Part shown: piece after piece, positions 3 to 3,885 of the stretch
Layout of the letters: the number at the start of each line of letters is the position of its first letter
How positions within the stretch are numbered: position 1 is the first letter of the stretch
From: SAR202 cluster bacterium
GTDB taxonomy: Bacteria > Chloroflexota > Dehalococcoidia > UBA3495
Reading direction: 5' to 3'
DNA: 5,285 bases
Assembly (NCBI GenBank): GCA_009392075.1
Contig: VFHG01000202.1
Span: 1 to 5,285 of the forward strand
Program-made: the position numbers and the translations under genes
The notes under the pieces: model-generated
Database searches by the model: none
What the model was told of the DNA's origin: nothing
Seen by the model: the letters and a program-made list of their open reading frames with translations, nothing else

Positions 3-569
3 AACGAAACATTGATCGCCCGCCACATCTTGTACCGTCAAAAATCCAGACCAGAGTTGACGTCGCCCGGAGACATAGCAGCCGGCCTTGGCGCCGGACC
101 GGACGAGACAGACAACGGAATTCTAATGCTAGCCCGGCTGGGCTTCTTAACTCTCGCCGACGGCCAACCAGTGAACACCTGCTCTTTGGCCGCAGACCAC
201 GGTAGGTTTCTTGACGGCTTGGGATTCTCCTTCCATACGGTAACGTTGGACGGCGAACAGCAGTTTGGCATACCTTGAGCCATCGACTTCCTCCTGTTGG
301 TGAACGGCCAATACCGCGGCAACAGCATCAAGCTGGACGACGCCTGCGCCCACTGCGCCGAACGCATCCATCTGGAGGCGAATAATGGGATCGTCACTCA
401 GGTAACCCCAGAAGACGTTGTTGTGCACCGGGGCGGCACTTGAGGCCAGAACAACTTCTTCCGGTCGGAAGAGCACCTCGTTGCATGGTCTGCGCCAGAG
501 CCTCTGGACCCCAGCTCGTGGATACTCGCTAAGGAAGATGTTCAGACGATTAGGGGAAGGTATTCATAG
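3..569 (+). CDS. merB: Alkylmercury lyase (MerB)-like protein, probable selenoprotein with two in-frame UGA (Sec) codons; 5' end outside window
   Basis: MerB cleaves the carbon-mercury bond of organomercurials using two cysteines and an aspartate (Cys96, Asp99, Cys159 in the enteric enzyme). Here one frame runs from the window edge to TAG at 567-569, broken only by TGA at 276-278 and 441-443. Counting from a possible TTG at 12, the product has 185 residues with the TGAs at 89 and 144. MerB has about 212, so the true start is probably upstream of the window. Around the first TGA the frame reads LDGEQQFGIP-U-AIDF, matching the MerB stretch WCALD, so U replaces Cys96 and the Asp is kept. Around the second it reads U-GQNNFFRSEEHL; the enteric CCHVHFF aligns without gaps and puts U at Cys159. 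A CxxC pair lies at residues 112-115, near MerB Cys117. The N-terminal part (residues 1-60) would be the winged-helix region. Seen: frame, TGAs, motifs. Inferred: Sec insertion. The alternative is a pseudogene with two nonsense mutations. The substrate may not be mercury, because the family has uncharacterised branches. Confidence 0.78.
295..313 (+). promoter_or_regulatory. Possible SECIS hairpin after the first UGA
   Basis: Bacterial SECIS elements are stem-loops within the coding sequence just downstream of the UGA, usually with a G at the start of a small apical loop that SelB recognises. After TGA 276-278, bases 295-300 can pair with 308-313 (six pairs, one G-U). The loop is UGAACGG, or GAACG if U301-G307 also pairs. 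The loop begins about 22-23 bases after the UGA, within the usual range. A competing fold pairs 294-299 with 320-325 perfectly around a 20-base loop, so this element is weaker than the second one. Confidence 0.42.
456..473 (+). promoter_or_regulatory. SECIS-like hairpin with GGUC loop after the second UGA
   Basis: Bases 456-462 pair with 467-473: six Watson-Crick pairs and a terminal U-G, closing a four-base GGUC loop at 463-466. There are 19 bases between the UGA (441-443) and the loop. The E. coli fdhF SECIS, as I recall it, also carries a GGUC-containing apical loop about 18 bases after its UGA, so both loop sequence and spacing fit a SelB-binding site. The stem codes for the conserved FFRSEE segment, so some of the pairing could be a by-product of protein conservation. 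Confidence 0.68.
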
Positions 570-838: not shown

Positions 839-1558
839 CTAGTTGATCGTTACTTGGCGGAATGAGACTCCTGTCTGAGGGTCTAGGTCCACCAACGTTA
901 CTTCTCCGGCGCCGGGGCTTCCGATGGGGCCTAGAGGGCAGCCCGAGTAGACCGCAGTCACACTACCCTGGGAGACGTCCACATGGCGGTCCCAATGGCC
1001 TAACGCCAGGTAGTGGCAACCGGCATCAGCGACTTCCTGAGGGTAGATCGGAGAGGAACGTTGGTCCCGGTCTTCAGCGTAATGGAAATGACCGTGGGCC
1101 AAGGCCACCAGCCAGTTGTTTTCCGCAGGCGACGGCATCCCATGAAGGGGTTTGAAGTCCGGAGTGTGCATGGGCATGGCTCTCCCCCAGAGGTCGATTC
1201 CCATCTTGGGGAACGAAAGCGTCTCACCCTCAGTTCCCTTGAGCACAAAGAGGTTTTCCGGCGCGTGGTTGAATGGTTCGCGGCGGTAGACCGAGGTCTC
1301 ATGGATCAGGTCATGGTTGCCAGGCAAGACCACCGCCGGCTCCTTCAACCGCTCCATCTCTCCCAGGAACCAACTCAGCACATCATCCGAGACACGCTCG
1401 TTGTCAAAAATGTCGCCCACCAGCAGCAGCATGTCGCCACCGTTATCGGCCACCGAGTCCACCACAGCCGTCAGCGCATCCGCCGACTGGGGATGACCGG
1501 TGATGTCGCCCAGGTGGGTGTCCGAGGTATGTATGAGACGCAGTTTGTTTGCAGGCAT
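839..1558 (-). CDS. SbcD/Mre11-like calcineurin-type metallophosphoesterase
   Basis: This is a dinuclear-metal phosphoesterase of the DNA repair exonuclease (SbcD/YhaO/Mre11) type; by family it would cleave phosphodiester bonds in DNA or nucleotides in the cytoplasm. The metal motifs appear in order: SDTHLGD (D13, H15), GDIFDNE (D49), GNHD (N81, H82), AHGHFH (H155, H157) and ALGHWDRH (H188). The stretch YSGCPLGPIG near residue 205 followed by GEVTLVDLD is the usual end of the SbcD catalytic core. At 239 residues it is only the nuclease core, without the SbcD C-terminal capping domain, and no SbcC ATPase is nearby. In the last motif, D190 stands where Mre11 has the second His of GHxH. It starts at ATG 60 bases after the CoA-transferase, with only a weak AAGA ahead, and is probably co-transcribed with it. 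The exact substrate is unknown. Confidence 0.88.
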   Translation of the reverse strand: MPANKLRLIHTSDTHLGDITGHPQSADALTAVVDSVADNGGDMLLLVGDIFDNERVSDDVLSWFLGEMERLKEPAVVLPGNHDLIHETSVYRREPFNHAPENLFVLKGTEGETLSFPKMGIDLWGRAMPMHTPDFKPLHGMPSPAENNWLVALAHGHFHYAEDRDQRSSPIYPQEVADAGCHYLALGHWDRHVDVSQGSVTAVYSGCPLGPIGSPGAGEVTLVDLDPQTGVSFRQVTIN

Positions 1559-2949: not shown

Positions 2950-3885
2950 ATGACTCAACAAGCGCCGAAGATAATAGTCCTGGGCGGGATCAACATGGAC
3001 CTGGTGACCTTTGCACCACGGTTCCCCCGGCCCGGCGAGACCGTGGTTGGCAGCCGGTTTCTAACCTATGCCGGGGGCAAGGGCGCCAACCAGGCCGTCG
3101 CCGCAGCCCGCATGGGGGCCAGGTCTGCCATGGTCGGGCGGGTCGGATGCGACATCTTTGGCCCGCAGTTGCTGGAGGGGTTGGCAGCGGCGGGCGTCGA
3201 CATCTCCGGCATCGGCGTTAACCCGGAGGAAAGCTCAGGAATCGCTGTTATAGGCGTCGATGAGACAGCCCAAAACTGCATAACCCAGGTCCTGGGGGCC
3301 AACGACAGCTGCGGCCCGGAGCAAGGCCAGGCGGTGAAACGTCTGCTGTCGGGCGCGGCGGCTTTGTTGCTGCAACTAGAAACTTCCATCGAGTTATCGT
3401 TGGAGGTCGCTTGGGAAGCCGGCTCCTTGGGGGTGGCTGTCATACTGGACCCAGGCCCGGTCAGGCCGGTGCCCGACGAACTCTTGGGTCTCTGTAACGT
3501 AATCACCCCCAACGAGACCGAAGCCCAGGCGTTGGTCGGGTTCCCAGTGACAGGACCGGAGTCCGCTGCCAAAGCCGCGGCCGCGCTTCTGCGAAGGGGC
3601 GTGGGCACGGCGGTGATCAAACTGGGAGCCCAAGGGGCCTATTTCGCCAATAACGAGGTTCATGGCATGGTTTCGCCCTTCGATGTGGCTGCCGTGGACT
3701 CGGTTGCGGCAGGGGACGCTTTCAACGGAGCGCTGGCGGTCTCATTGGCCGAGGGCAAGGACCTAGAAAAATCGGTAACGATCGCCTGTGCCGCCGGGGC
3801 GCTGGCTGTGACCCAAACCGGAGCTCAGGACTCCATGCCTGAACGCAGCATGGTCGAAGAACTGGTGCGCGCTCAGCGTCCCTGA
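2950..3885 (+). CDS. rbsK: Ribokinase-like PfkB family sugar kinase
   Basis: It phosphorylates a sugar, most likely ribose to ribose 5-phosphate, using ATP in the cytoplasm. At 311 residues it matches ribokinase length (about 309), with landmarks nearly in E. coli RbsK register: GGINMD (N15, D17) and AGGKGANQA (41-49) for sugar binding, LQLE (141-144), TPNETEA (187-192), LGAQGA (225-230), VDSVAAGDAFNGAL (249-262) with the anion hole and catalytic base D256, and AAGALAVTQTGAQDSMP (281-297). The ATG is the first start after an in-frame TAG at 2935, but no clear Shine-Dalgarno sequence precedes it, so it may be translated from a very short leader. A TTGACC at 2911 could be its -35 box, with a poor -10 (TAGCGT). 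Related PfkB kinases of nucleosides or other sugars cannot be excluded. Its last 13 bases overlap the opposing membrane-protein gene. Confidence 0.9.
   Translation: MTQQAPKIIVLGGINMDLVTFAPRFPRPGETVVGSRFLTYAGGKGANQAVAAARMGARSAMVGRVGCDIFGPQLLEGLAAAGVDISGIGVNPEESSGIAVIGVDETAQNCITQVLGANDSCGPEQGQAVKRLLSGAAALLLQLETSIELSLEVAWEAGSLGVAVILDPGPVRPVPDELLGLCNVITPNETEAQALVGFPVTGPESAAKAAAALLRRGVGTAVIKLGAQGAYFANNEVHGMVSPFDVAAVDSVAAGDAFNGALAVSLAEGKDLEKSVTIACAAGALAVTQTGAQDSMPERSMVEELVRAQRP

What the first reader, a model, noticed from the sequence alone, without database searches (positions are those of the whole stretch)
3..569. MerB-like enzyme with UGA at both catalytic cysteine positions (double selenocysteine organomercurial lyase?)
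The only two stops in a coherent 189-codon frame are TGAs. In a comparison with enteric MerB recalled from memory, they fall at Cys96 (WCALD versus P-U-AID) and Cys159 (CCHVHFF versus U-GQNNFF), while catalytic Asp99 is kept. Random decay would not be expected to hit just the two active-site cysteines, leave the rest of the frame intact, and use only TGA. A selenolate pair in place of the thiol pair would be a striking version of carbon-mercury cleavage, given how strongly selenium binds mercury. Standard annotation would split the gene into a truncated 88-residue ORF plus antisense shadow ORFs. I cannot say whether such selenoproteins have already been reported.
Basis: partly seen in the sequence, partly recalled or inferred. 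Interest (0 to 1): 0.94.

Follow-up and report, generated by a model that had tools for sequence, protein, structure and literature searches.

The report
Double-selenocysteine MerB-like organomercury enzyme
In SAR202 and other Chloroflexota bacteria, a relative of the methylmercury-breaking enzyme MerB carries UGA codons at both positions of its catalytic cysteines, most of them followed by a hairpin like those that direct selenocysteine insertion, so it is likely a selenoenzyme predicted to cleave carbon-mercury bonds with two selenium atoms, one that ordinary gene annotation cuts short; the copy in this particular window may already be decaying.

Summary
Window 3-566 (stop TAG 567-569) is one frame whose only two stops, TGA 276-278 and 441-443, fall on the two catalytic-cysteine columns of MerB; Asp99 is kept. 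The pattern is conserved: L001-L005 and eight more loci of the class search have both TGAs. Over 73 aligned MerB domains all 66 TGAs in 7,548 core codons lie on the two columns (23 Sec/Sec, 20 Cys/Sec, 30 Cys/Cys, 0 Sec/Cys). A stem of six or more pairs follows 39 of 40 UGAs at site 2 against 7 of 29 Cys codons, usually with loop GGUC and biased codons. Most relatives' genomes carry tRNA-Sec, SelA, SelB and a TGA-bearing SelD; G005 does not. Neighbours are mercury-related: a Cys MerB plus GDCCVxC protein, or an ArsR regulator. The known Sec MerB-like SaoL has one Sec and is another family. Caveat: the window copy and its sister show relaxed selection (omega 1.21) and the sister is broken. Sec insertion and mercury activity are inferred.

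The parts
3..569 (+). 3' part (about two thirds) of a MerB-like gene, read through two TGA codons; stop TAG 567-569
   Evidence: translation; PF03243 E 1.2e-9; homologues
276..278 (+). TGA at the first catalytic-Cys column (MerB Cys96 equivalent), predicted Sec
285..287 (+). GAC, Asp at the MerB Asp99 column
294..307 (+). SECIS-like hairpin after site 1, apical loop GGUG (GGUC in L001-L004), 5 pairs, sixth position mismatched; an overlapping alternative stem also exists
345..347 (+). Cys at the MerB Cys117 column (CxxC with 354-356)
441..443 (+). TGA at the second catalytic-Cys column (MerB Cys159 equivalent), predicted Sec
456..473 (+). SECIS-like hairpin after site 2, 7 pairs with GGUC loop at 463-466
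839..1558 (-). metallophosphoesterase; first gene of the synteny shared with L003
1619..2809 (-). CoA-transferase family III; synteny shared with L003 (L003 copy matched by DNA)
2950..3885 (+). ribokinase-like PfkB kinase ending in a normal TGA stop; synteny shared with L003

Best explanation
Window 3-569 is the 3' part of a MerB-family gene whose two in-frame UGA codons, at the two catalytic-cysteine columns, are likely read as selenocysteine, so that the full protein would be an organomercurial lyase with a Sec-Asp-Sec active site. Predicted working: SelB with tRNA-Sec inserts Sec at each UGA, each directed by its own hairpin whose loop starts 22-23 bases after the UGA's first base; the first selenolate would take up R-Hg+, the second would complete the chelate, Asp would assist proton transfer to carbon, and Hg(II) would stay bound to the selenolate pair until handed on. 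Shown: positions, conservation, Cys/Sec exchange, hairpins, Sec machinery in most relatives examined, mercury-related neighbours in some. Inferred: Sec insertion itself, mercury as substrate, product release. The copy in this window belongs to a lineage in which selection on the gene has relaxed, so it may be an early-stage decaying member of a working family.
For: Both TGAs on catalytic columns. Conserved in L001-L005 and 8 further loci; across 73 domains 66 of 66 core TGAs on the two columns. Cys at the same columns in homologues. Purifying selection over the longer distances: omega 0.21-0.32 in the five comparisons among window, L001, L003 and L004 other than window-L001. Stems of six or more pairs: site 1 18 of 21 UGA against 11 of 48 Cys codons, p 1.7e-7; site 2 39 of 40 against 7 of 29, p 3.3e-7; at site 2 the best stem has a four-base loop at +22 in 38 of 40 UGA rows and, with six or more pairs, in 2 of 29 Cys rows. 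Codon +7 Arg is CGG in 28 of 28 (background 0.27), codon +9 Glu is GAA in 35 of 39 (0.34); closing pair C-G 29, T-A 7, A-T 2, G-T 1, A-C 1. tRNA-Sec(tca) in 4 of 5 source genomes; SelA over cut-off in 4 of 5 and 10 of 10; SelB over cut-off in 3 of 5 and 9 of 10; SelD over cut-off in 19 of 20, 17 of these with an in-frame TGA. Neighbours: Cys MerB plus GDCCVxC protein in L002 and L003; ArsR/SmtB regulator in L025, L026, L034, whose relatives lie in L075 (a MerA locus) and in L045 with a Cys MerB and a MerA of 502 bits against 454.
Against: No protein, 75Se or activity data. No whole genome is held for the window. G005 (L005, both TGAs) has no SelA match and no tRNA-Sec, SelB or SelD over cut-off. 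Window against L001: 6 synonymous and 22 non-synonymous differences, omega 1.21; 12 N and 3 S fall on the window branch; the window departs from 2 of 24 family-invariant columns in its part (K103T, L252F) and its site-1 loop is GGUG. Synonymous-codon tests on the window alone are not significant (p 0.34 and 0.29; 0.27 and 0.11). At site 1 the hairpin evidence is mixed: L080, L084 and L085 have only 4-5 pairs, Cys rows related to L031 (L032, L033, L095) keep a six- or seven-pair stem, and in L001-L004 and the window the longest stem is an overlapping alternative with its loop at +26. NCBIfam MerB and SaoL cut-offs are not met. MerA over its cut-off is found in 2 of 15 family genomes, and a Cys MerB already sits beside the Sec protein in L002 and L003, so the Sec protein may do another job.
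Confidence: 0.74

Rival explanations
1. The window copy is a pseudogene or near-pseudogene of a real double-Sec family: the TGAs are inherited Sec codons but the protein is no longer needed in this lineage. (This can be true together with the best explanation.)
For: omega 1.21 between window and L001, 12 N and 3 S on the window branch; L001 has 2 TAA, 2 TAG and an extra TGA before site 1; L007, a second fragment in the same assembly, is frameshifted; P0003, a close relative, has an altered N-terminus.
Against: 188 codons free of other stops, both TGAs and the site-2 hairpin kept; P0005, 89% identical over the shared part, has an N-terminal half like that of the intact relatives; the upstream third of the window gene is not visible.
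Confidence: 0.55
2. A real double-Sec protein of the MerB family that is not an organomercurial lyase: it binds Hg(II) or another soft metal or organometal (tin, arsenic, lead) as a scavenger or sensor.
For: Score below NCBIfam MerB cut-offs; a Cys MerB is already next to it in L002 and L003; MerA over cut-off in only 2 of 15 genomes; a selenolate pair would hold Hg very tightly (general chemistry).
Against: The Asp column and both chalcogen positions are invariant among the 12 members of the window's clade aligned (Sec entered as Cys); mercury-related neighbours.
Confidence: 0.3
3. The TGAs are stops, sequencing errors, or a reassigned codon (Trp, Gly or Cys), not Sec.
For: P0002, a close relative, has Gly at the first site (DNA not seen); database proteins of the family end at the first TGA; G005 shows no Sec machinery.
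Against: TGA ends two ordinary genes in the window; many separate genomes carry both TGAs; hairpins; Cys occupies the sites in other homologues; Sec machinery in the other genomes examined, and SelD itself has an in-frame TGA in 17 of 20.
Confidence: 0.05

Closest known systems
MerB, organomercurial (alkylmercury) lyase, PF03243 / NF033555 / NF009710; MerB2 5c17
   Same: Same Pfam domain over its cut-off; Cys96, Asp99, Cys159 columns occupied by Sec, Asp, Sec; Cys117 column kept
   Different: Sec predicted at both catalytic columns; longer N-terminal part; 24.7 bits against 200 and 23.6 against 193 in NCBIfam
SaoL, MerB-like organometallic lyase selenoprotein, NF040728 (Haft and Gwadz 2023, not held; listed in PMC13188914)
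   Same: MerB-like, selenocysteine in the protein
   Different: Listed with one Sec in a CU motif (passages). Sec/Sec proteins scanned here score 20.7-51.9 bits against a cut-off of 140, and L024 has no match. The other SAO-system genes were not searched for.
Single-Sec (Cys/Sec) MerB-like proteins of Chloroflexota (L060, L070-L072 and others)
   Same: Second-site UGA with, in most, the same GGUC hairpin
   Different: First catalytic position is still Cys
UxxU metal-binding (seleno)protein NF041115
   Same: Two Sec residues in a protein linked to soft metals (PMC13188914 table)
   Different: The two Sec are three positions apart in one motif, here 55 apart in a MerB domain

Membership tests
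MerB (PF03243) | Pfam gathering score | tested here: met
   38.7 bits against 27 for the window; 35.1, 38.2, 31.2, 31.3 for L004, L005, L024, L025; the distant P0028 is not matched
MerB (PF03243) | Cys96, Asp99, Cys159 triad | tested here: inconclusive
   Columns are Sec-Asp-Sec, not Cys-Asp-Cys; Cys itself is present in L028; met only if Sec counts as Cys
MerB equivalog (NF033555, NF009710) | NCBIfam curated score | tested here: not met
   24.7 against 200 and 23.6 against 193
MerB (PF03243) | Protonolysis of organomercurials | not testable with these tools
   needs purified protein
SaoL (NF040728) | NCBIfam curated score | tested here: not met
   24.8 against 140; L004 21.7, L005 34.3
Bacterial selenoprotein | In-frame UGA aligned with Cys in homologues | tested here: met
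Bacterial selenoprotein | Hairpin with G-containing loop just downstream of UGA | tested here: met
   As a group; site 1 is weaker, above all in L080, L084, L085 and the window itself
Bacterial selenoprotein | SelA, SelB, tRNA-Sec, SelD in the genome | tested here: inconclusive
   Window genome not held. All four in G002 and G003; G004 with SelD in two pieces; G001 without SelB over cut-off; G005 with none
Bacterial selenoprotein | Sec found in the protein | not testable with these tools
   needs 75Se or mass spectrometry

The most novel reading that the evidence does not exclude
An abundant ocean lineage (SAR202) and several other Chloroflexota make organomercurial lyases in which both catalytic thiols have been replaced by selenols, reached through a Cys/Sec intermediate (second site first) and in three sequence groups, and these hidden enzymes demethylate methylmercury in nature, probably leaving Hg bound to selenium.
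Probability: 0.5. Interest if true: 0.9.

Novelty: new variant of a known kind. Interest (0 to 1): 0.78.

Why it matters
Selenium binds mercury more tightly than sulfur does (general chemistry), yet the known carbon-mercury-cleaving enzyme uses two thiols. A natural diselenolate version makes the question 'does selenium help or trap the reaction?' directly testable. It also bears on the ocean methylmercury budget: a recent survey of open-ocean metagenomes called genes with Prodigal and discarded merB sequences lacking Cys-96, Asp-99, Cys-117 or Cys-159 (PMC12874090, passages seen); Sec forms would be cut at the UGA and lost by such a filter.

Tried and rejected
Genome-wide recoding of TGA was rejected (TGA stops in the window). 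SaoL membership was rejected. Hairpin energy against synonymous shuffles gave z below 0 at every UGA site but single-sequence significance at only some; the grouped comparison is stronger, though its rows are related. SelA presence separates weakly because it is common: 21 of 21 genomes with a TGA in a MerB match against 31 of 38 without, p 0.043; 11 of 11 family genomes against 254 of 393 in the class sample, p 0.0095. The tree is a quick one of 68 rows with 124 columns, 24 of 65 inner branches open and a long-branch warning; it needs 5 changes at site 1 and 4 at site 2 but cannot tell gain from loss. The plasmid collection gave one weak match, to an annotated merB2 (E 6e-3). Two papers on SaoL and on new selenoprotein neighbourhoods (Haft and Gwadz 2023; Haft and Tolstoy 2025) are not held, so their text was not seen.

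Rows dropped: 4 rows without both sites were left out (L006, two of L007, the N-terminal piece of L001); identical rows were merged (69 rows left); five rows of four loci (L067 twice, L030, L097, L098) were left out of the tree as duplicates or near-duplicates. Loci L079-L098 were picked by me, mostly because their matches bore TGA, and L045-L074 were the best-scoring matches, so the 23/20/30 split is not a frequency.

Full report
Observation. Frame 3-569 of the window reads 188 residues with two TGAs (276-278, 441-443) and ends at TAG 567-569. Read through, it is a MerB-domain protein by Pfam (E 1.2e-9). Against MerB2 of the PDB both TGA positions align with two cysteines; the residue three after the first is Asp, as in classical MerB (essential Cys96, Asp99, Cys159 named in PMC8261052, passages). 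The window begins at the equivalent of residue 101 of L004's 288.

Relatives. A scan of genome contigs gave 7 loci, all MAGs whose titles name SAR202, Chloroflexi or Dehalococcoidia. L001-L005 have TGA at both sites; L006 and L007 are fragments with TGA at site 2. The window's gene order downstream (phosphoesterase, CoA-transferase, ribokinase, a protein without Pfam match, NUDIX) recurs in L003 (75-79% identical DNA), so the window is from this lineage. A protein search returned 31 proteins; 28 cover 48% of the query, and the 11 of these that I fetched end just before the first TGA position. In a sample of 393 genomes of G002's class, 11 have a match, with 12 loci. Apart from L023 (the L002 gene again), 8 loci have both TGAs (L024-L027, L029-L031, L034), L028 has Cys at both, and L032 and L033 have Cys then TGA. 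L031-L033 are more distant (E 3.8e-5 to 5.6e-4).

The phylum. With the Pfam model, 59 of 400 genomes of G002's phylum match and 21 of them have a TGA inside a match. I aligned 77 domain rows from the loci in hand; in the 73 with both sites the pattern is 23 Sec/Sec, 20 Cys/Sec, 30 Cys/Cys and no Sec/Cys, and all 66 TGAs in 7,548 codons from 20 before site 1 to 20 after site 2 lie on the two columns. Some rows are duplicates and many loci were chosen for bearing TGA, so these are not frequencies, but decay would scatter stops. Outside that core, L001 has one more TGA. Sec/Sec occurs in three sequence groups: the window's (UA[IV]D[FY] ... GG[TG]UGxNN), one with Glu or Asp at i+3 (L031, L079, L081-L083) and one with UA[IV]DA (L080, L084, L085). 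A quick tree puts the window with L001 and needs 5 changes at site 1 and 4 at site 2; it has few columns and open forks.

Hairpins. Site 2: a stem of up to nine pairs with a four-base loop starting 22 bases after the U of UGA, in 38 of 40 UGA rows; the bases there read GGUC in 35, GUUC in 3, AGUC in 1, CCUC in 1. Stems of six or more pairs, loop anywhere from +17 to +27: 39 of 40 UGA rows against 7 of 29 Cys rows (p 3.3e-7); site 1, 18 of 21 against 11 of 48 (p 1.7e-7). Rows are related, so the p-values are optimistic. The protein sequence does not explain site 2: at codon +7 all 28 arginines are CGG (27% elsewhere in these genes), at +9 35 of 39 glutamates are GAA (34%), and in the 7 rows where codon +7 is TGG the closing pair is T-A instead of C-G, through a serine codon TCA in place of TCG. 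Site 1 is less uniform: eight UGA rows have the best stem with a four-base loop at +23, L001-L004 and the window can form it with 5-6 pairs but also a longer overlapping stem with loop at +26, L080, L084 and L085 reach only 4-5 pairs, and Cys relatives of L031 (L032, L033, L095) keep a stem. In the Cys/Cys relative L028 both hairpins are gone (3 of 6, 3 of 7 pairs). In the window itself site 2 is complete, site 1 has 5 of 6 pairs and loop GGUG; taken alone neither is significant. The likeness to the SECIS of E. coli fdhF, with a GGUC-type loop at similar distance, is recalled, not tested.

Machinery. ARAGORN finds tRNA-Sec (tca) in G001-G004, 4 of 5; SelA is over cut-off in the same four, SelB in G002-G004. 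Of ten further family genomes SelA is over cut-off in 10, SelB in 9, and a tRNA-Sec Rfam match of 65 bits or more stands in 9. SelD is over cut-off in 19 of 20 genomes and in 17 of these the best match contains one TGA: these genomes seem to read UGA through in SelD, a known selenoprotein (recalled). G005 has none of the four; whether that assembly is incomplete was not established. The Cys/Cys genome G192 also has the machinery.

Function. In L002 and L003 a Cys MerB lies upstream on the same strand (L002 copy: Pfam 94.8 bits against 27, NF009710 160.8 against 193, so below that cut-off; the L003 copy is 67.5% identical), and between the two genes is a 66-residue GDCCVxC protein (NF041374, 95.4 and 92.4 bits against 40). 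GDCCVxC relatives also occur in the Cys MerB loci L054, L055, L061 and L063. In L001 and L004 the gene upstream is a different one (GMC oxidoreductase in L004). L025, L026 and L034 have an ArsR/SmtB regulator (NF033788 84-87 bits against 55) beside and divergent from the gene; its relatives lie in the MerA locus L075 (64% identical) and in L045 (57%) with a Cys MerB and a MerA of 502.4 bits against 454.45. These contexts make mercury the best guess. Against: MerA over its cut-off in 2 of 15 family genomes, and no such neighbours seen in the short flanks of L024, L027 and L029.

Decay in the window's own lineage. Window against L003 and L004 gives omega 0.225 and 0.212, but window against L001 gives 6 synonymous and 22 non-synonymous differences, omega 1.21. 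Polarised base by base with L002-L004: window 12 N, 3 S; L001 12 N, 1 S; 1 S open. Of 24 family-invariant columns in this part the window departs from two. L001 has five extra stops before site 1. I therefore think it about even that the window's copy no longer works, while the family does.

Novelty. NCBIfam of June 2026 holds one Sec MerB-like family that these scans met, SaoL; no protein scanned here reaches its cut-off. The 2026 review PMC13188914 lists SaoL with one Sec in a CU motif (passages); PMC9312934 lists an alkylmercury lyase MerB-like selenoprotein (passages). PMC2398784, PMC5029168 and PMC12013277, searched by term, do not mention MerB. In the listings of the full-text searches I saw no title or abstract reporting a double-Sec MerB; the two papers that hold both 'selenocysteine' and 'SAR202' were not opened, the primary SaoL paper is not held, and supplements could not be read. 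So: a known kind (MerB; Sec MerB-like) in a variant that I did not find described.

Noticed in passing
L060, L064, L066, L070, L071, L072, L086-L092, L094-L096: A broad Chloroflexota set of MerB-like proteins with Cys at site 1 and UGA at site 2, most with the same GGUC hairpin; far below the SaoL cut-off where scanned (L060, L070, L072, L088, L094).
   Followed up: partly
L093:1935-2399: A classical-looking MerB (105 bits to NF009710) with UGA at the second catalytic position followed by Cys.
   Followed up: partly
L080, L084, L085 and L031, L079, L081-L083: Two further groups with UGA at both sites, one with Glu in place of Asp99 in 4 of 5 members.
   Followed up: partly
L002:5463-5660, L003:5463-5660: GDCCVxC protein gene between the Cys MerB and the double-UGA gene.
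   Followed up: yes
L025:2239-2592, L034:892-1245, L026:932-1276: ArsR/SmtB regulators divergent from the double-UGA gene, related to regulators in MerA loci.
   Followed up: partly
L005:8576-9355: HMA plus CopZ-type zinc-binding protein (NF047645, 115 bits against 100) two kilobases downstream of the double-UGA gene.
   Followed up: no
L001, L007: The SAR202 assembly OSU_TB47 holds two damaged copies of the gene.
   Followed up: yes
P0002, P0007: P0002 has Gly at site 1; P0007 has Cys at site 1 and ends where site 2 would be; their DNA was not seen.
   Followed up: no
L028:1318-2193: Cys/Cys member nested among Sec/Sec relatives in the tree, without the hairpins, in a genome that has Sec machinery.
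   Followed up: partly
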